Assembly (NCBI GenBank): GCA_030602705.1
Contig: JAUVZF010000001.1
Coordinates: forward strand, 1 to 64,000
Source of the DNA: Planctomycetota bacterium
GTDB lineage: Bacteria > Planctomycetota > Phycisphaerae > FEN-1346
Length of the DNA: 64,000 nucleotides
Reading direction: 5' to 3'
The notes under the pieces are model-generated. The model was not told the DNA's origin. It made no database searches and saw nothing but the letters and a program-made list of their open reading frames with translations. Shown in pieces: positions 5,797 to 47,258 of the stretch. Numbering within the stretch: position 1 is the stretch's first letter; every line of letters begins with the position of its first letter. The position numbers were made by a program, and so were the translations under genes.

Positions 5797-5973
5797 TCAC
5801 AAGGTTCCCCCCGCCCCCTCCTCGCGCGCTTCCCAGTCCCCGCACCAACTCATCGCCGCCTTTGGAACAACCTGTGGGTGTCTGTGACAGGTCGAACGAT
5901 TGCCCCAAGTGTCCTTGTCTTCGGGAACCCACCACCTGCACGTTACGCACCGCTTCTCGCGCTCAGGCATCAT
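5797..5973 (-). CDS. Small Cys-rich protein
   Basis: RCVTCRWWVPEDKDTWGNRSTCHRHP...SWCGDW; start overlaps the end of the recombinase. Confidence 0.5.
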   Translation of the reverse strand: MMPEREKRCVTCRWWVPEDKDTWGNRSTCHRHPQVVPKAAMSWCGDWEAREEGAGGTL

Positions 5974-6692
5974 GCGCCTCCCTTCTCCCTCAGCAGGATT
6001 TTCCGAACGGTCGCTGCCCGCCATTTGCCCCCGTGCCGCGTCGGAATCTCGTTCGCATCCAGCGCCTTTGCAATCCGATGGTAGCCGATGCCTGCCTTCC
6101 GCATCTTGGCCATCTGGTGTATGACTTTCTGCTCGCCCTCGTCTGGAACCTCATGCACAATTCGTGTCCCTCTTTTCGTCGTCTTGTCTGACGGGACGCC
6201 CCTGAAACCATAGCGCACGCTGCCTGTCATCTCTCCGTGCGCCCTTTTCCACGCCAGACTCGCCTTGGTGCGCTCGCTTATCAGGTCGCGCTCGAACTCG
6301 GCCAGGACTGCCAAAAGCCTGAATACCATTTTTCCGGCGGCGGTCGTCGTGTTGATGTCCTCGCTCAGACTCACAAGGTCGGCTCCGGCCGCCTTCAGTT
6401 GCTCGGCGATTTCGATAGTGTCGTAGGTCGAGCGTGCGAGTCGGGCCAAACTGTAAACGACGAGAACGCCCTTGGTATCACACACCTGGGCCAGCGCCTG
6501 TTGCAGGGCGGGACGGTTATCGGCACGACTCCCGCTCACGCCGTTCTCGACACAGACTCTCTCTAGCGTGCGACCTGCTTGTTCGCACCAGTTGCGGATA
6601 GCGCTCTCCTGCGCTTGTAGGCTGACGCCGTCTGCGGCCTGGCCTGCGGTTGATACACGGACGTAGCCAATGGCTTTGGGCGGATCAGTCAT
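5970..6692 (-). CDS. Serine recombinase / resolvase family
   Basis: IGYVRVSTAGQAADGVSLQAQ...LVVYSLARLARS...RLLAVLAEFERDLISERTKASLAWKRAHG: serine recombinase signatures. Confidence 0.92.
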   Translation of the reverse strand: MTDPPKAIGYVRVSTAGQAADGVSLQAQESAIRNWCEQAGRTLERVCVENGVSGSRADNRPALQQALAQVCDTKGVLVVYSLARLARSTYDTIEIAEQLKAAGADLVSLSEDINTTTAAGKMVFRLLAVLAEFERDLISERTKASLAWKRAHGEMTGSVRYGFRGVPSDKTTKRGTRIVHEVPDEGEQKVIHQMAKMRKAGIGYHRIAKALDANEIPTRHGGKWRAATVRKILLREKGGA

Positions 6693-22858: not shown

Positions 22859-24094
22859 CTATTTGTGGCGGGCGAGAGTGGCATCAAATGCCTTGCGAAC
22901 CTCTTTCCACAACGCTCGCATCGGTGCCAGAAGCAAAATTAACTGGGTGCGCTCGATAGGGCTCATGTCAATCTTGGCCGCGACTAGGCATCGGGCGAGC
23001 AGTTTGTCCCTGTCCTCGCCGGCGGCCTTCTGAAGATAGGTCAGCATCTGACCGATTTCATCCCGCAGCGCCATCTCGCCCCGCTTGCCCACGGTGGCGG
23101 GAATCTTCGGCACGGTCACGTCGGGATCGACCGGCCCATGGTCAAAAGGGATCGTATCGTCCTCCTCATCACCCTCTGGTGGCAGAAGGTCGGGAGGGGC
23201 GGCCTGCGGCGCTTCGGCCGCTTTGTCCTGCGCTTCGCGGGTGGCGTCGGCGTTCCGCTTCTCCTGCCACTCGGCGAAGGCCGCCTTGTCGATCTTGCCC
23301 TTCTTGATGCCCGCGTGGAGGATTTCAAGCCGCCCGGTCTTGGCGCCAGGCTTAGCGGCCGAGAGGTGTTCGAGCCGCGTCACGCCAGGTACGTCCTTGA
23401 AGGCCGTCAGGCTTTTCAACCACGCCTCGCGGTCAGTCTTGCTCGCCCCCTTGGTGGCACCCATGATGGCGTCAAAGATTTCCTTCCGCAGGACGGCCTG
23501 CCCGGGCGTGTCCTTCGCGGCATAGTTCGTCGGCTTGCGCGACCCACCCGATGCAGGTTTGGATGCCGGAGCGCCTTTGCGGCCCGTCTGCTTAGGATGG
23601 CTGTAATCGGCGTCGCGGTCTTTGCCGCCCTCGCCGAGCGGGATGCAGAAGGTTTGCAGGAGCGTGTACTTGTAGGCCGCGGTCATGGCCTTGTTGGCGG
23701 CCTTGTCGGCGTAGTCGGTGGCCTCGCCTAGAGCAGTTGAAATGATGCTGGAACCATCTGGGGCGCACCACTCGAACTCGACCAGCATCAGCATGTGGAT
23801 GCCCTTGCTGCCGCTACCGCTGACGGTTTCTTCGGTCTGGTGGCTCACAACGCGAGGCGTGCAGAACACGCCGGCCTCGACCAGAGCAGGTTGCACCGCA
23901 TCGTAGGCGTCGTCGATGGAGCGGAAGTAGTATTTTTGCTGCACGTTTTCGTGCGACTTGCCGACGGCCTTGATCTTCGCCATCACTTGGCTCATCAATT
24001 TGAAGATGTCGCCCTTGCGCGGTGGCGTGAACCGTGGCCGCTCAGCGATCGGCGCCGCCTCTTGGGTTTCTGGCTCTGCCTGTGTCGCGGTCAT
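22859..24094 (-). CDS. ERF-family single-strand annealing recombinase
   Basis: FKLMSQVMAKIKAVGKSHENVQQKYYFRSIDDAYDAVQPALVEAGVFCTPRV...ATDYADKAANKAMTAAYKYTLLQTFCIPL is the ERF signature. Contains protospacers for CRISPR spacers 1 and 2. Confidence 0.9.
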   Translation of the reverse strand: MTATQAEPETQEAAPIAERPRFTPPRKGDIFKLMSQVMAKIKAVGKSHENVQQKYYFRSIDDAYDAVQPALVEAGVFCTPRVVSHQTEETVSGSGSKGIHMLMLVEFEWCAPDGSSIISTALGEATDYADKAANKAMTAAYKYTLLQTFCIPLGEGGKDRDADYSHPKQTGRKGAPASKPASGGSRKPTNYAAKDTPGQAVLRKEIFDAIMGATKGASKTDREAWLKSLTAFKDVPGVTRLEHLSAAKPGAKTGRLEILHAGIKKGKIDKAAFAEWQEKRNADATREAQDKAAEAPQAAPPDLLPPEGDEEDDTIPFDHGPVDPDVTVPKIPATVGKRGEMALRDEIGQMLTYLQKAAGEDRDKLLARCLVAAKIDMSPIERTQLILLLAPMRALWKEVRKAFDATLARHK

Positions 24095-25278
24095 CGTCTT
24101 TCTCCTTCTGGCCTTTCTTCTTTCATCTGGCTCTTGAATTGGTGCGCAATCTCCCCAAGCATCGTTCCGTGGCACTCGGCCTTCCCGCTGGGATGTGGCC
24201 CTCGCGTGGGCGTATCGCTCGGCAGGCCGTTCTTGTCGCGTTCCTCATCGTAGGGCAAGACGAGGCGCATCCCTTGGCTGGAGTAACCACGAAGGCTTTC
24301 CATCGAGAGGAAGTTGTGGGCGCTGCAGTGGGGGCATTTACCGACCCAGACGTTGTAGCAGGCGTCGAGAGTCCCCAAACTTTCAAAGACCGCCTTTTCA
24401 CAATGCGCGCACACGCCGGGAATCAAGCCGTCACCCGGCTGAGATTTCATTGTGAACACCATGCTCATCGTCTTTCTCCCTTCCTCTGTCCTGTTCGGCT
24501 TCCGCCCCGCTCGTGCCACAGCGCGACGGCTGTTCGGGTCCTGGGTGTTCGGCTTCGCATCCAGACGTGCCGCGCGATGGCCTTGCCGCAGCCATCCGGG
24601 AAAAGGCGGCAGCGAAGCCGCGCTCCTCGGCTCGTTGGCGCGGTCCCAAGTGCGCGATGTCCAAGCGGTCCTCGCGCTCCTGTCGCTCGGCGTCCAGTTC
24701 AGCGACCAGGTCCTGCTCCTCGCGCTCGTCGTCAGTCAGTTCCCGCAGGTCCTCGAACTCAAACATGGCATTTCCCCTTTTGCCCCTTTCGCTCCCGTTC
24801 CCGCTCCTCGCGCACAAACCGCCTGAACCGCCGGTTGGCGTTTTCTATCAGGTCCGGAACCTTGCGGACCTCAGCCGCCACGCGCTTGAGTTCGGCCTCC
24901 GCGCGATCCCACTCGGCTTGCGAGCGATCGCCCCAGTCGGCTGCGTGGTCAGTCGGCATCGGCTCACTTCTCCTAGAAGGGCATAACATCCAAGATGGCA
25001 CCTTCGCTTATAACGCTAGAAATTGTACGGATAGGGAGTTCCAGCCTCTTTAAGGCATCTTCTACTTCCCGAATGCCCGCATTCTTCTGTAGTGGTTCGG
25101 ACACGTGGTCATGGAGCAGGGCGTACAAACCTGTTGCCTCGCGCTCGGTCAACAACAAGTCAATGCTCTCCACGTGCTGGTTTTTTTTAGCCGTAGCCAT
25201 CGCTCACTCCTTCACTTGCTCGGTTCCGGTTTCCTCACGCTCGGTCGCCCCAGTCGGCTACGGGGTCAGGCTGCATGG

Positions 25279-27161: not shown

Positions 27162-27542
27162 TCAAGACCGCCGCACCGCCTGTTTCTTGATGGCGCGGCG
27201 GAGCGCACGGATTAAGGGTTCGGGGTCGCCCGTTTCGACCCAGATGCTAAATGGTTGCCCGTCGTTGGTGCATCTTTTCCCCGACTTGGTAACAAGGGGA
27301 CACTCAGGGGTACATGTGTGGTTCTTGTGATAGAACCTGCAAAGGGCACATGTTTTATCGACGAAGTAAAAGACGGTCTCGCCATCGGTCAAATCACCAT
27401 CCACGGTTTTCTGGACGCTGTGCCGTGCTATCGCCGCCTTCCGCGTGCCGAGGTACTTTTTCAGTGTGTGGGCCAGCGCGTCGGCCTTTTTACAGCGGCT
27501 GATTGGCGAATAGAACTCACGCTTCCAGGTTCGGATACTCAT
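27162..27542 (-). CDS. Hypothetical phage protein with Cys cluster
   Basis: CALCRFYHKNHTCTPECPLVTKSGKRC; located immediately after the 36-bp array. Confidence 0.5.
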   Translation of the reverse strand: MSIRTWKREFYSPISRCKKADALAHTLKKYLGTRKAAIARHSVQKTVDGDLTDGETVFYFVDKTCALCRFYHKNHTCTPECPLVTKSGKRCTNDGQPFSIWVETGDPEPLIRALRRAIKKQAVRRS

Positions 27543-27589
27543 CGGGATTCCTCCTCAAAGGGTAGCCCCGGCCGGGCGCACTTGAACTT

Positions 27590-28192
27590 TGGGTTTCAGA
27601 AGTTGTGTGGCTCGCATTCGATCCTTGGGGTTCAGCGGACGGATGGCTCGCAGCCTGTTCATGGGTTTCATTCATAAGATGGCTCGCACCGCCGCAATGG
27701 GTTTCAGTTGAGCACTGGCTCGCACTGCCACTTTGGGTTTCAGGCGCAATGTGGCTCGCATTCTGACCTTGGGTTTCACCGCTTGTATGGTTCGCATCTG
27801 TACGCTGGATTTCAGTCGTTGCGTGGCTCGCACGTTTGGGTTGGGCTTCAGCGGAACGATGGCTCGCACGATTCCAGGGGGTGGCAGGGAGTAGATGGCT
27901 CGCACCGGCGGAATGGATTTCAGTTGACCATTGGCTCGCAAGTTGGGCCTGGGGTTCACTTATGCGTTGGCTCGCACTTGTACGTTGGGCTTCAGACGCA
28001 AAGTGGCTCGCACTGACAAGATGGGTTTCAGTTAGCAAATGGCTCGCACCGTGTTTCTGGATTTCAGGCGGCGCGTGGCTCGCAACTCTACACTGGATTT
28101 CATTGGCGAGTTGGCTCGCAAATAAGGTCTGGGTTTCAGCCTGCCCATGGCTCGCATGGCCTAAATGGGTTTCAAGAGCAGCGTGGCTCATT
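27590..28192 (-). repeat. TIGR-like array: 36-bp units with two constant 9-bp blocks and two variable 9-nt spacers
   Basis: TGGCTCGCA blocks start at 27608, 27644, 27680, 27716, 27752, 27788, 27824, 27860, 27896, 27932, 27968, 28004, 28040, 28076, 28112, 28148, 28184 (last degenerate). TGGGTTTCA-type blocks start at 27590, 27626, 27662 and every 36 bp to 28166. All 33 intervening spacers are exactly 9 nt. Strand assigned by co-orientation with the tas-like gene; transcription direction unproven. Confidence 0.85.
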
Positions 28193-29006
28193 CGACAAAC
28201 TCCCACGGATCGTCCTTCGTCGTGTGCCCCTGCTTCTCGATAACATAGGGTTCACGCACTGCTAGGCCTTCCATCGCCCGCCAGACGAGCCAGAGATGAG
28301 ACAGCAATCGTTTAGCGATAAATCTGAGCGCCATGTTGTTGATGCGCCCCAGCGTCCATTCCGGCTTCGCGGGGGCCTTGGCCGGCGGCTTCACGCGCGG
28401 TAGATGGTGAGCGGGCGTGACCTTCGTGCCGTCGCTCTGCCAGATGATGTTGCCGTTCGCCACCTCGCGCTCCGTGATGCGGACCTTGTAGGCGTCGTAC
28501 AGTTTGCGGTACGGGCTGTCGGCGATCTTGACGAACGACTGGCCGAGTTTCCAAGCCGTCGTCTTGAGTTCCGCGTTCCAGTTCGCCTTCTGGCCCACGG
28601 CCCGCTTCGGTGCCCGCCCGTCAATCACATGCAGACCGGCATACGCCCATAGTTTGCTGATGGTGTCGAACCGCCCGATGTCGCCGATGTTCGCTACCAG
28701 CAGGGCGGCGAGGCGAGGGCCGACGCCTTTGACGCGAATCAGCCAACCGTCCACGATGGGTAGGTGTCGGACCTCGCGCCAGACCATCTTCTCCATCGCA
28801 GCCTCGGCGTCTTTCAGGCGCTGCAAGGGTACGTTGAAGAAGTCCTCGGCTTCTGCGTCCGTCATCAACCCTTCGCGCACCAACCGTTTGACTCGCAACT
28901 CCAACTGGATGCGGAGTTTTTGGGTGTCGTACAGGCCGCGAGTCACCACCTTCACGCGGTCGTTGATACCACCCGCGCTGGTTGCCGAAACTGTCGCCTG
29001 CGTCAT
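28188..29006 (-). CDS. Tas-like protein (Transposase_20/Nop-like, no nuclease domain), probable TIGR-associated TasA-type
   Basis: Coiled-coil N-terminus, then VDGWLIRVKGVGPRLAALLVANIGDIGRFDTISKLWAYAGLHVIDG as in the IS110 C-terminal Transposase_20 domain, without the IS110 DEDD catalytic N-terminus; SD AAGGAG; 3' end abuts the array. Confidence 0.75.
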   Translation of the reverse strand: MTQATVSATSAGGINDRVKVVTRGLYDTQKLRIQLELRVKRLVREGLMTDAEAEDFFNVPLQRLKDAEAAMEKMVWREVRHLPIVDGWLIRVKGVGPRLAALLVANIGDIGRFDTISKLWAYAGLHVIDGRAPKRAVGQKANWNAELKTTAWKLGQSFVKIADSPYRKLYDAYKVRITEREVANGNIIWQSDGTKVTPAHHLPRVKPPAKAPAKPEWTLGRINNMALRFIAKRLLSHLWLVWRAMEGLAVREPYVIEKQGHTTKDDPWEFVE

Positions 29007-29903: not shown

Positions 29904-30026
29904 AAGCGAAGTCAGGTAAGTCTTTTGCGGTTGCTGCGCGGCGGGTCTCCGTACCCGCCGCGACATGGCGGTCGCAAGCGCGGTGGGTACGGAGACCCAC
30001 CGCGCAAGACTTACGTAAGTCCGCTT
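29904..30026. repeat. Nested inverted-repeat (MITE/REPIN-like) element
   Basis: Outer arms AAGCGAAGTCAGGTAAGTCTTTTGCG vs revcomp AAGCGGACTTACGTAAGTCTTGCG; inner arms each near-palindromic (GCGGGTCTCCGTACCCGC / GGTGGGTACGGAGACCCACC). Confidence 0.75.
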
Positions 30027-42967: not shown

Positions 42968-43864
42968 GTTGTGGATTGACCGCGGGCTGGGGTTGGTTAC
43001 ACTCTATCTCCAGAAAGCCGCCGGCGAGGACCGCGTTGTGGATTGACCGCGGGCTGGGGTTGGTTACACTCGACGGCCTTGATCTTCGCCATCACCTGCG
43101 AGTTGTGGATTGACCGCGGGCTGGGGTTGGTTACACTGCGATGCGAGACGGACGTCTGGTACTGGCTGTTGTGGATTGACCGCGGGCTGGGGTTGGTTAC
43201 ACTCTATGCGATCAGGTTCGGGCGACCGCTAACGTTGTGGATTGACCGCGGGCTGGGGTTGGTTACACTGCCGGCCTGCGCGACGTGTCCGGACAACTCG
43301 TTGTGGATTGACCGCGGGCTGGGGTTGGTTACACTGCAGGTGGTTCTCGCATTGACGGCTCTATTGTTGTGGATTGACCGCGGGCTGGGGTTGGTTACAC
43401 TCGTGACGGCCGAAGGGGACGCGGCGGATAAGTTGTGGATTGACCGCGGGCTGGGGTTGGTTACACTCTCGCCCCATATCCACCTGTGGCCGCCGGAGTT
43501 GTGGATTGACCGCGGGCTGGGGTTGGTTACACTCGCCGGCGTCCGCGACCTCATCCCCGACTAGTTGTGGATTGACCGCGGGCTGGGGTTGGTTACACTA
43601 CATGGCCAAGGTTGTCGGCTGGTGGCATGAGTTGTGGATTGACCGCGGGCTGGGGTTGGTTACACTGCTCAACGGTGCGGACATCGGGGGCGTGACGTTG
43701 TGGATTGACCGCGGGCTAGGGTTGGTTACACTTGCGGATCCAGATCTTGTCCGAGTGCCCCATGTTGTGGATTGACCGCGGGCTGGGGTTGGTTACACTT
43801 TTGGCGCCCACGAAGTCGCCGCGCTGCTGTTGTGGATTGACCGCGGGCTGGGGTTGGTTACACT
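42968..43864 (+). CRISPR. Type II-C CRISPR array, 14 repeats of 36 bp, 13 spacers of 29-31 nt
   Basis: Repeat GTTGTGGATTGACCGCGGGCTGGGGTTGGTTACACT starting at 42968, 43035, 43102, 43168, 43234, 43300, 43366, 43432, 43498, 43564, 43631, 43697 (one G>A), 43764, 43829. Confidence 0.98.
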
Positions 43865-43912
43865 AGTTGGCCCGTAAGTCGTGTGAGGCCGGGCAGTTGC
43901 TGCGACCGGAGT

Positions 43913-44136
43913 CTAGAAAAGTTCCAGTTGTCGCGGCTGCTGCTCGGTCGGTTTGCGCCTTTTTCCCCCAAAAACACGCATCCTTTCATACTGTTTGTCC
44001 GTGATGCGAATCAGGCGCACCTCGCCCTCCAGTGGCACCCGGCCGACCTTTCGCCTTCGCGGCGGACGGTGAGCGACCCCTGGTCGATGGCCAAGTGGTT
44101 GCCCTTGCCCGAGATTTCGATGGTGCGCTTAATCAT
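43913..44136 (-). pseudogene. Deletion remnant: cas1 N-terminus joined out of frame to cas2 C-terminus
   Basis: Minus from 44136: MIKRTIEISGKGNHLAIDQGSLTVRREGE (Cas1-like start, overlapping the cas9 stop). Minus 44038-43913: VPLEGEVRLIRITDKQYERMRVFGGKRRKPTEQQPRQLELF* (Cas2-like end). Confidence 0.75.
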
Positions 44137-47100
44137 GGCACGGGAGAACGCGGCCTATGGGGTCCACGGTAACCTTCTGCGTTTGGTACTTACGCAGCGT
44201 GTCCCACGGCCCGATGAGTACGCGAGTGTCCTTGTCTTCAGGTTGGGCCTTGGCCGCAGTGTGCAGGCGGAAGACGACGACCGGACTGCTCACGGAGATA
44301 TTCTGCACGCGGTAGAGCCGAACTTCCCCGGTCTTCCTGTCGGTCAAATAGGCCATGTCGTTGATGGAGAGGGAGAAGACAAACTTGGAGCCATCGGGCA
44401 CGCTTGGCTTGCCATGCTGCCCCGCGCGGTCCACGACGGGCATCCCTTTGCGCAGGCGTTCGTAAGCCTCAAAGCGCGAAACACAGCGTCCCGTCCACTT
44501 GCCGTCGGGCGTCTCGTAGATTTCCACGTGATGGTTGGCGCCGGGCTTGACGAACTTGGCGGGCTTGCCCGATACCTTGCGTATGGGAATGGCGGTGTTC
44601 TCCAAGGTCGTGATCCGCACGCGCTTGATGGGAACACCCGATGGCATGGTGAGTGCCGGTTCCGTCAGCACGTTGCCAAACGCGCCGCTCCCCTTCTCCT
44701 CGATGCCGCGCTCAGCCAGGCGGTCGCGCACGATCTGTTGAATCACCGGATCGCGGACGCGTTGCACCATGGCGCGGGTGAGGCGTTCGACGGGCACGCG
44801 GTAGGCGTACGTGTCCGCTTGGGTGGTGGGCCCATAGCCCGTGTCCTCGTGCAATCCGCCACGCAGTTTCCGGTGCGCGCGGTGGGAGACGTTGATCGCG
44901 TGGATGGCCTCGCGGACCTGGTCCCAGAACCCCTGCCACGGCGGCTGCATAGGCGCGTCTTTCGGGGCGTTGCCGACGACACCCGAAAGACGCTGAAGGT
45001 GGGAGCGAGTCGTCAGGGCGATCACGACGGCGTCGATGGCGTGGTAGCGGTGGTCGTCGCGGGACTTGCTGTAGTCGGTGCCCAGGACGCCGTACAGTCC
45101 CCAGTAGTGGCCGAGTTTGCTGGTGGTCTGGCCTTTGACGGGCCGCACCTCAACTCCGAGGCTTCTCAGGTAGCGCATGGCCAATTGGCTGGCGTAGCGG
45201 GTGTCGTTGAGTTGGCGATTCGCGAAATTGTCGAACTCGACCTCCTTGACGGTGAAGCGGCGGCGTTTCTTCCACGGCAGGCGCTTGGCCCGCTGAAGGA
45301 TGCCCTCGAATTCCGGCGTGTCGTGGTACGCCTCGTAGGGTGTGCGGTTGCCCTTGTCGCGGTTGACCTCGGCACCGTAGCACAGGGTCTTGTTCAGGTA
45401 GGAATCGTCGAGGCTGCGGTCGAGGGGGTAGATGTGTTCGATCTGGACTTCGGGCGACAACAACTTCGTCTTCGGGATATTCTTGCCGGTATAGACGCAC
45501 AGCCCCCCGCACTCCTCCCAAAGACGGTACTTGATGACGTCCTGCCGGGAGGGATTGGGAATGTTGAACTCGGCGACGAGGCGGTCGCGGATTGCGTCGT
45601 TCTCCTTCCGGCGGCGGACGTTGTCGAAGAAGATGTCGCGCCGCCGCTCCCTGCTGTGCTTCATGTCGCGCGCCAGTTCCACCACGATCTCCTCCGCCGT
45701 GCCGTACTGGCGGACCAGGGCGTTGACGACCTTGCGCGTCTCGGTAAGTGCGCGGCGGACAAGAGGGTTCGTCAGGTTCTGGATAACGTCTGCGGCCGCC
45801 GGCAGGCGGTCGAACGTGGCCACGGGCGGCGCGAGTTCGTAGCCGGCCAGGGCCTTGGCCTCGCTGACCACGTGGCCGGCGTCCGGGTCTTTGTCCGGGC
45901 ACAGTTTGCAGCAGCGCTCGTCGCACGCGTGATCCGGTTCCAGGTAAGGCAGCATCTTGCGGATGGCCTTCAGGGAGACCCGCCGGTGGCCCTTCGGCGG
46001 CTTGATCTTCAGGAGTTGCCCGGCCTGGGCCTCGGTGCAGCCCCAGTCTTCGATGGCAAGGCGGCGCAGGTTTTCGGGGTCCTGCACGTCGGCCAGCGCG
46101 TCATACACCGCCTCGCGGGCGTCCTGTGTCAGACCGTCGTACCACTTCCGCAACGTCTTGTGCCGCAGGGCGGCCTCCACGCGGTTGCCCCAAAGGTAGT
46201 CGCGTTTGCCCTCGGTTTCGAGATTGAACGTCTCGGCGTCCTGGAGGCCGAGGTGCTTGCGTATGGCCGAGAACTTCATCTTGGTTTTGCTGCCGAGCGC
46301 ATCGGTCAACCTGGCCCGCTCGTCCGCCGACAGCGCCGTCGTCTCGCCCGAAGCGCGGACAACGCGCAGGTTGTTAATCTCCTGGACCATGCGGAACCGT
46401 TCCGCCAGCCAGTGCGCGCGTGGACAGCGCTTCTCGCCTTGCTCAAGTTCACACTCCCCGATGACTTCCGGGTCGAAGCGCAGTGGACGCTGGTAGAAGA
46501 TGGCATGGTGCACGCGGGCTTTCAGATCATCGCTCAGCAAGTCCGGGTGGTGCTTGGCCTGGGCCTCCCAGAGCAGGGCGAACTCGTCCTCGTACATGGC
46601 ACGGAGGGTGTACCGGCCACGCGTGCGCTGGTCATCATCGCTGGCGTGATTCTGTGCGGCCAGGCGCTTGGCGCGGTATTCGCCGAGGGTGCGGCAGCGT
46701 GCCTCTTGTATCTCTACTTGGAGAGCCCCCGCGTCCTTGGTGACCTTGTTGTCGTCCTCTGACTCGGTCTTGCGGTTCGACTTGAATCCGCGGCGCTGGC
46801 ACATGTGGTAAAGCGCGCGGCCAAACTCATGCGGCTCAAGGGCTTCATCGAGCCCCCGCGCACGGATCTCGTAGGGGTTCTGCTTCATCAGCGCCCTGAA
46901 AGCATCGCGGTCCTCAGGAACAAGCCCGCCTGCAGAAAGGATGCCGTGCAGCAGGCGCCGGCGCTGGCGGCGTCGGTAGACGACCCGGCGCTGGCTGCGC
47001 TTCTCGCGGCGCGTCTGGCCGGGGGCCTGCTCCTTCTTCTCATTCAGGTGCGGGACCCCTTCTGGGAACACCCGCACGCCCGCGCGGATGCGGCGGCCGT

Positions 47101-47185
47101 CGTCGAACGTGTCGCCGTCGGCGGCGATCATCGCCCAGCCGACCGAGTTGCTGCCCAAATCGAGTCCGAGTGTGTAGCGGGTCAT
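44129..47185 (-). CDS. cas9: Cas9 endonuclease, compact type II-C (~1018 aa)
   Basis: RuvC-I YTLGLDLGSNSVGWAM; Arg-rich bridge helix; RuvC-II EEIVVELARDMK; HNH VQIEHIYPLDRSLDDSYLNKTLCYGAEVNRDKGNRTPYEAY; RuvC-III DDHRYHAIDAVVIALT. Start placed at MTRYTLG rather than the ORF-track start at 47236. Confidence 0.97.
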   Translation of the reverse strand: MTRYTLGLDLGSNSVGWAMIAADGDTFDDGRRIRAGVRVFPEGVPHLNEKKEQAPGQTRREKRSQRRVVYRRRQRRRLLHGILSAGGLVPEDRDAFRALMKQNPYEIRARGLDEALEPHEFGRALYHMCQRRGFKSNRKTESEDDNKVTKDAGALQVEIQEARCRTLGEYRAKRLAAQNHASDDDQRTRGRYTLRAMYEDEFALLWEAQAKHHPDLLSDDLKARVHHAIFYQRPLRFDPEVIGECELEQGEKRCPRAHWLAERFRMVQEINNLRVVRASGETTALSADERARLTDALGSKTKMKFSAIRKHLGLQDAETFNLETEGKRDYLWGNRVEAALRHKTLRKWYDGLTQDAREAVYDALADVQDPENLRRLAIEDWGCTEAQAGQLLKIKPPKGHRRVSLKAIRKMLPYLEPDHACDERCCKLCPDKDPDAGHVVSEAKALAGYELAPPVATFDRLPAAADVIQNLTNPLVRRALTETRKVVNALVRQYGTAEEIVVELARDMKHSRERRRDIFFDNVRRRKENDAIRDRLVAEFNIPNPSRQDVIKYRLWEECGGLCVYTGKNIPKTKLLSPEVQIEHIYPLDRSLDDSYLNKTLCYGAEVNRDKGNRTPYEAYHDTPEFEGILQRAKRLPWKKRRRFTVKEVEFDNFANRQLNDTRYASQLAMRYLRSLGVEVRPVKGQTTSKLGHYWGLYGVLGTDYSKSRDDHRYHAIDAVVIALTTRSHLQRLSGVVGNAPKDAPMQPPWQGFWDQVREAIHAINVSHRAHRKLRGGLHEDTGYGPTTQADTYAYRVPVERLTRAMVQRVRDPVIQQIVRDRLAERGIEEKGSGAFGNVLTEPALTMPSGVPIKRVRITTLENTAIPIRKVSGKPAKFVKPGANHHVEIYETPDGKWTGRCVSRFEAYERLRKGMPVVDRAGQHGKPSVPDGSKFVFSLSINDMAYLTDRKTGEVRLYRVQNISVSSPVVVFRLHTAAKAQPEDKDTRVLIGPWDTLRKYQTQKVTVDPIGRVLPCHD

Positions 47186-47229
47186 GGCGGTCCCTTTCTT
47201 CCTGGCGTGCAAAAAAAGCAAAAATATTA

Positions 47230-47258
47230 TTGACATTCCCGGGGCGGTTGTCCATAGT
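47230..47258 (+). promoter_or_regulatory. Putative tracrRNA promoter
   Basis: TTGACA 47230-47235, 17 bp, CATAGT 47253-47258, about 7 nt before the anti-repeat. Confidence 0.65.

What the first reader, a model, noticed from the sequence alone, without database searches (positions are those of the whole stretch)
27590..28192. Prophage-borne 36-bp dual-spacer array with TIGR (tandem interspaced guide RNA) architecture
The region is a strict 36-bp-period array: constant TGGCTCGCA, 9-nt spacer, constant TGGGTTTCA (variants TGGATTTCA, TGGGCTTCA, TGGGGTTCA), 9-nt spacer. There are 17 A blocks and 17 B blocks and all 33 spacers are exactly 9 nt. On the minus strand the two blocks are related (TGCGAGCCA and TGAAACCCA, shared TGNNANCCA), giving an 18-bp half-period. 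36-nt units with two 9-nt guides beside a Nop/Transposase_20-like protein match published TIGR-Tas systems. Because 36 is divisible by 3 and the blocks lack stops, at least four frames are open, so automated annotation would call a false ASHxxxETQxxx repeat protein.
Basis: partly seen in the sequence, partly recalled or inferred. Interest (0 to 1): 0.95.

Follow-up and report, generated by a model that had tools for sequence, protein, structure and literature searches.

The report
Prophage dual-guide RNA array (TIGR-TasA)
A prophage carries a 17-unit array of paired 9-letter guides next to the Nop-domain protein expected to bind the RNAs made from it, a TIGR-TasA system of the kind published in 2025; related arrays in dozens of other phage contigs suggest where the RNA is cut and that single guides can be swapped, but what the guides target is still unknown.

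Summary
Window 27577-28188 (minus strand) is exactly 17 units of 36 nt: edge TGCGAGCCA, 9-nt spacer A, loop TGAAACCCA (variants), 9-nt spacer B; 34 spacers. It starts inside the stop codon of a 272-aa Nop-only protein whose best solved-structure matches, by sequence and by fold, are TIGR TasR and TasH. It is a TIGR-TasA locus in a prophage early region: a new member of a known kind. The same repeats occur in 55 stretches of IMG/VR contigs, all with arrays, 39 with a Tas gene in the stretch. There, terminal edges keep only AGCCA (5') or TGCG (3'), predicting the mature tigRNA AGCCA-N9-loop-N9-TGCG, 36 nt. In 1,070 spacers of related arrays stop codons are about as frequent as composition predicts, so the repeat-protein reading fails. 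No targets were found in own flanks, 48% of the host genome, or whole-collection scans of four guides. Two phage contigs identical over 12.4 kb differ only in two spacers, one a precise half-spacer swap; this bears on how TIGR arrays change, but rests on one pair of assemblies. A Cas9-CRISPR locus 15 kb away has two spacers resembling this prophage's erf gene.

The parts
28188..29006 (-). tasA: 272-aa Nop-domain-only Tas protein (TasA type)
   Evidence: Pfam Transposase_20 1.8e-6; PHROG 4285 7.5e-53; PDB TasR 9mty 6e-34, TasH 21kl 1e-13; AF2 pLDDT 86.8, Foldseek ranks 1-11 all TasR/TasH
27577..28188 (-). TIGR array, 17 units x 36 nt
   Evidence: phase of units set by the truncated terminal edges
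28184..28188 (-). 5'-truncated first edge (AGCCA); its first A is the last base of the tasA stop codon TGA
   Evidence: same truncation in most related arrays
27577..27580 (-). 3'-truncated last edge (TGCG)
   Evidence: same truncation in most related arrays
27878..27886 (-). degenerate loop repeat of unit 9 (TGCCACCCC)
27162..27542 (-). 126-aa Cys-rich ORF starting 34 nt after the array; no family match
27517..28206 (-). spurious 229-aa ORF (ASHxxxETQ) that annotation could call across the array
   Evidence: no Pfam or PHROG match; spacers of related arrays carry stop codons about as often as composition predicts
22859..24175 (-). phage Erf recombinase gene of the same leftward early region (context)
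   Evidence: Pfam ERF 2.6e-19, PHROG 155; matched by two host CRISPR spacers

Best explanation
A prophage TIGR-TasA system. The minus-strand transcript that ends tasA runs straight into the array; the pre-tigRNA is cut within each edge repeat between positions 4 and 5 (TGCG|AGCCA) into 17 RNAs of 36 nt, AGCCA-spacerA-UGAAACCCA-spacerB-UGCG. A TasA dimer holds each RNA through the UG (box D) and CCA (box C) of edge and loop, and the two 9-nt spacers pair with opposite strands of one roughly 18-bp DNA site. Having no nuclease domain, TasA would bind and bend DNA, so the likely effect is blocking transcription or replication of rival mobile elements or of host genes. Shown here: anatomy, homology, conservation of repeats and of the truncation pattern, absence of coding constraint in related arrays. 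Inferred from comparison: the cleavage site. Inferred from published TasR/TasH work: RNA binding and paired-strand targeting. Inference only: interference by occupancy, and the class of target.
For: Array. Protein; placed with L063 (55% identity) and L039 in the Tas tree. Same edge/loop pattern in 55 stretches of IMG/VR contigs, arrays parsed in all of them, Tas ORFs in 39, among them a close relative of the solved TasR (L049 to 9mty, 1.5e-127), and on an archaeal MAG contig with a Tas homologue (L073). Terminal edges: first conserved at positions 5-9, last at 1-4, inner at all 9. Stop codons in 1,070 spacers near expectation in six frames. Whole units gained, lost or replaced between related phages while their neighbours stay. 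Published definition and biochemistry: PMC12045711.
Against: No RNA data. No target found: own flanks at permutation level for 639 guides, 1.88 of 3.88 Mb of the host genome, 100 of 108 kb of the Microcystis phage genome for its own guides; whole-IMG/VR scans of four guides gave 1-8 stretches with no independent recurrence. No recognisable rho-independent terminator directly after the array. The paper saw no protection against conjugation or phage even for the nuclease TasR.
Confidence: 0.93

Rival explanations
1. A protein made of 12-residue ASHxxxETQxxx repeats encoded on the minus strand.
For: One frame is open for 205 codons and makes a 229-aa ORF.
Against: No Pfam or PHROG match. In 1,070 spacers of related arrays stop codons occur about as often as composition predicts in all six frames. 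Some spacers in related arrays are 8 or 10 nt, which shifts the frame (L057 unit 5). With spacer letters shuffled the frame stays open in 7% of trials.
Confidence: 0.02
2. The protein is an IS110-type transposase and the array is a by-product of the element.
For: Pfam Transposase_20; Foldseek matches to IS621 and ISCro4 recombinases at weaker E-values.
Against: The protein has only the Nop part (272 aa; no DEDD/RuvC domain found by Pfam, and an all-helical model); TasR and TasH rank above IS110 by several orders of magnitude; it sits in a phage early operon beside a dual-repeat array that IS110 elements lack.
Confidence: 0.02
3. A decayed TIGR-TasA locus carried by a defective prophage, no longer expressed.
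For: The serine integrase ORF is short (240 aa, matching 85-311 of 651 model positions); one loop is degenerate; no virion genes beyond one large ORF lie in the window.
Against: tasA is intact, with third-position GC of 0.80 like other coding genes; 16 of 17 loops keep TGAA-N-YCCA and all inner edges but one are exact; phase is unbroken over 612 bp.
Confidence: 0.12

Closest known systems
TIGR-TasA (Nop-only Tas with dual-repeat array; Faure et al. 2025, PMC12045711)
   Same: Solo Nop protein, array directly downstream, 9-nt alternating repeats with UG and CCA boxes, 9-nt spacers, truncated terminal edges, phage location.
   Different: 17 units (published: most often 5-15); array lies between two genes without a recognisable terminator; in a prophage 15 kb from a host Cas9-CRISPR locus.
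TIGR-TasR (Thermoproteota archaeon TaTasR, PDB 9mty)
   Same: Closest solved relative (6e-34 by sequence, 31% identity in the fold alignment). A phage TasR closely related to 9mty (L049) carries the same edge-loop pattern as the window.
   Different: No N-terminal RuvC nuclease here.
TIGR-TasH (PDB 21kl, 9w04)
   Same: Same Nop fold; two-spacer guide RNA.
   Different: No HNH domain here; more distant in sequence (1e-13).
IS110 family recombinases with bridge RNA (IS621, ISCro4)
   Same: Shared Nop-like RNA-binding region.
   Different: No DEDD domain here; no bridge RNA or element ends seen (ends were not systematically searched).

Membership tests
TIGR-Tas | Adjacent Nop-domain Tas protein | tested here: met
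TIGR-Tas | Two alternating 8-12-nt repeats with 9-nt spacers | tested here: met
   9-nt repeats, 34 spacers all 9 nt
TIGR-Tas | UG (box D) and CCA (box C) shared by edge and loop | tested here: met
   TGCGAGCCA and TGAAACCCA; one loop (unit 9) deviates
TIGR-Tas | 5'- and 3'-truncated terminal edges | tested here: met
   AGCCA at start, TGCG at end; same in most related arrays
TIGR-Tas | Rho-independent terminator after the array (stated as typical, not required) | tested here: not met
   no T-run hairpin directly after 27577; a coding gene follows 34 nt later. Such a terminator is seen in L004
TIGR-Tas | Processing into 36-nt tigRNAs bound by Tas | not testable with these tools
   needs small-RNA sequencing; truncated edges predict 36 nt
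TIGR-Tas | Tandem targeting of opposite DNA strands | not testable with these tools
   natural-target searches negative
TasR / TasH subtypes | N-terminal RuvC or HNH nuclease | tested here: not met
   272 aa, Nop only: TasA subtype
IS110 transposase | DEDD catalytic domain plus Transposase_20 | tested here: not met
CRISPR | Single long repeat (about 25-36 nt) with spacers of similar size, and cas genes in the locus | tested here: not met
   the neighbouring CRISPR-Cas9 at 42968-47236 is separate

The most novel reading that the evidence does not exclude
TIGR arrays have a mechanism that replaces single 9-nt half-spacers precisely, leaving repeats and the partner spacer untouched, so guides are renewed one half at a time without Cas1-like genes in the locus. 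The case: contigs L049 and L057 are identical over 12.4 kb except for spacer B of unit 5 (ATGACAAAA against AGGCCGATGC) and one base in spacer B of unit 6; within arrays, spacers shared by two units (8 or 9 of 9 letters) are of the same kind (A-A or B-B) 18 times against 4 for A-B. This was seen in relatives, not in the window's own array.
Probability: 0.25. Interest if true: 0.85.

Novelty: new member of a known kind. Interest (0 to 1): 0.5.

Why it matters
The locus itself adds one more TIGR-TasA. Its value is that its edge and loop repeats serve as a DNA probe that finds dozens of further arrays at once, which allowed comparative tests: a predicted cleavage site, rejection of the protein reading for related arrays, a quantified absence of near-full-length cis targets, and a first look at array turnover between related phages. 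[quoted passage not shown] pairs such as L049/L057 make that testable. The prophage also sits 15 kb from a Cas9-CRISPR array with two spacers that resemble its erf gene, so two RNA-guided systems meet on one contig.

Tried and rejected
Target searches (order spacer A then reverse complement of spacer B, my derivation from the published 8-nt 3' overhangs and C-5 rule, plus the reverse order; gaps 0-2 or 0-3): 17 guides in the 64-kb window, nothing under 3 mismatches; 568 guides against a 629-kb pool of related loci, no clear excess over same-strand controls; 17 guides against 1.88 Mb of the own genome, two single-mismatch hits, neither in the expected order, and shifted-pair controls did as well (two even gave an exact match); 639 guides against own flanks with 30 permutations; Microcystis phage guides against 100 kb of its genome; four guides against all IMG/VR, 1, 6, 5 and 8 stretches, where sites recurred only between near-identical contigs. 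Segment duplication as the source of array growth: the window's unit 8 vs 14 similarity has permutation p = 0.04 and pooled counts exceed permutations only modestly, one tandem triple making most of the top class, so it is suggestive only. Rfam scan of 26-31 kb: one sub-threshold match outside the array. Related genomes: 1 other of 101 has a weak match, in a 538-codon frame that looks like IS110 rather than TasA.

Full report
Observation. On the minus strand the window reads, from 28188 down to 27577, exactly 17 units of 36 nt: AGCCA, spacer A (9), TGAAACCCA, spacer B (9), TGCG; between neighbours TGCG and AGCCA join into the edge TGCGAGCCA. The edge-N9-loop pattern has 15 matches at one mismatch or less against 0 in 100 shuffles and is absent from the rest of the 3.88-Mb genome.

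Protein. The gene ending in the first truncated edge (28188-29006, minus) has 272 aa and only the Nop/Transposase_20 region. Sequence search of solved structures gives TasR 9mty at 6e-34 and TasH 21kl at 1e-13; PHROG 4285 at 7.5e-53. An AlphaFold2 model from 24 relatives (pLDDT 86.8) matches TasR and TasH in ranks 1-11, then IS621/ISCro4 recombinases. It is TasA in the sense of the paper (PMC12045711). In the tree its sister is L063 (55% identity), then L039.

Setting. Neighbouring leftward genes include Erf, a LexA-type DNA-binding domain, RusA, a replication initiator and an N6/N4 methylase, and a short serine integrase, so the region is a prophage early module at the left end of a 115-kb contig. 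From 30 kb rightward the genes are bacterial (by eye, type IV pilus genes; Cas9 by Pfam). Of 101 genomes (own plus 100 relatives) only one other gave a match, a weak one in a 538-codon frame that looks IS110-like.

Relatives. TGAAACCCA-N9-TGCGAGCCA was found in 55 stretches of IMG/VR contigs, some on the same contig. A parser found arrays in all 55, and a Tas profile matched an open frame in 39 of them; stretches without one are often cut short. They include TasR forms: the L049 protein matches the solved TasR at 1.5e-127 over nearly its full length. Of 11 GTDB stretches with the pattern, L073 (a Thermoplasmatota MAG) carries a Tas homologue; single matches there can be chance. The array of the isolate Microcystis phage Mvi-JY20 has the same edge and ends in a hairpin with a T-run.

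RNA, not protein. In 1,070 spacers from 91 non-redundant arrays, stop codons number 183, 107, 92, 132, 85 and 73 in the six frames against 185, 123, 123, 144, 96 and 96 expected from overall base composition. Some frames are somewhat under expectation, which the uneven composition of spacer ends may explain; none is free of stops. Spacer lengths of 8 and 10 nt also occur. Across arrays, the first edge is conserved only at positions 5-9 (0.71-0.90 against 0.19-0.47 at 1-4) and the last only at 1-4 (0.89-0.92 against 0.27-0.48), while inner edges are 0.95-1.00 throughout. The ends of the array thus mark the ends of the unit, TGCG|AGCCA, which gives 36 nt, the size published for tigRNAs. This is comparative inference, not a measured cut.

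Array turnover. L034 and L037, about 86-92% identical in flanking DNA, share seven units (three identical, three with one changed base, one with two), differ by two blocks of two units, and have unrelated end units. L049 and L057 align over 6,536 bp with seven differences, all in the array: six in spacer B of unit 5 and one in spacer B of unit 6; a further 5,900 bp is reported 100% identical. If two events fell at random, both landing in the 234 spacer bases has probability about 4e-4. The two records carry consecutive IMG sample numbers; assembly error in a repetitive stretch cannot be excluded, and no third contig was found.

Targets. None found; see Tried and rejected. The negative is strong for cis targets with at most two mismatches, weak for host targets (48% searched) and nearly silent for other phages, since exact 18-base matches are expected by chance in a collection of that size.

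CRISPR neighbour. A 14-repeat array (42968-43864) and a 1,035-aa Cas9 (44129-47236, minus) lie 15 kb from the TIGR array. Spacers 1 and 2 match the prophage's erf gene at 23009 (minus) and 23962 (plus), four mismatches each, where shuffled versions of them reach 9 and 11 at best. TIGR guides do not match anything in the window, the CRISPR locus included, at two mismatches or fewer.

Verdict. A well-supported TIGR-TasA system; a new member of a known kind. What would lift it is proof of half-spacer replacement or a natural target.

Noticed in passing
window 42968-43864 and 22859-24175: Host CRISPR array (14 repeats of 36 nt) whose first two spacers match the prophage erf gene with 4 mismatches each, several at the spacer 3' end; Cas9 of 1,035 aa at 44129-47236 (-).
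   Followed up: partly
L049 vs L057: 12.4 kb identical except for two adjacent TIGR spacers, one a precise swap of a half-spacer.
   Followed up: partly
L010, L031, L044, L048 (IMGVR_UViG_3300036863_000086, 72 kb): One phage contig with about 105 parsed dual-spacer units in many arrays (published arrays most often have 5-15 units).
   Followed up: no
L007:2620-2940: Mycobacteriophage Pari: a gene annotated 'transposase' is a Tas homologue and the gap before it looks, by eye, like a stem-loop type array (CCA-N9-CG twice per hairpin); 76 Mycobacterium phage records have the homologue.
   Followed up: no
window 5970-6692: Serine integrase ORF is short (240 aa; 85-311 of 651 model positions), so the prophage may be defective.
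   Followed up: no
window about 29950-30010: Imperfect inverted repeat (CGGGTCTCCGTACCCGCC...GGTGGGTACGGAGACCC) near the phage-host boundary.
   Followed up: no
spacers of 91 arrays: Spacer position 9 is G-rich (42-47%) and C-poor (9-12%) in both A and B, next to the UG of the following repeat; the window's own A spacers instead end mostly in C.
   Followed up: no
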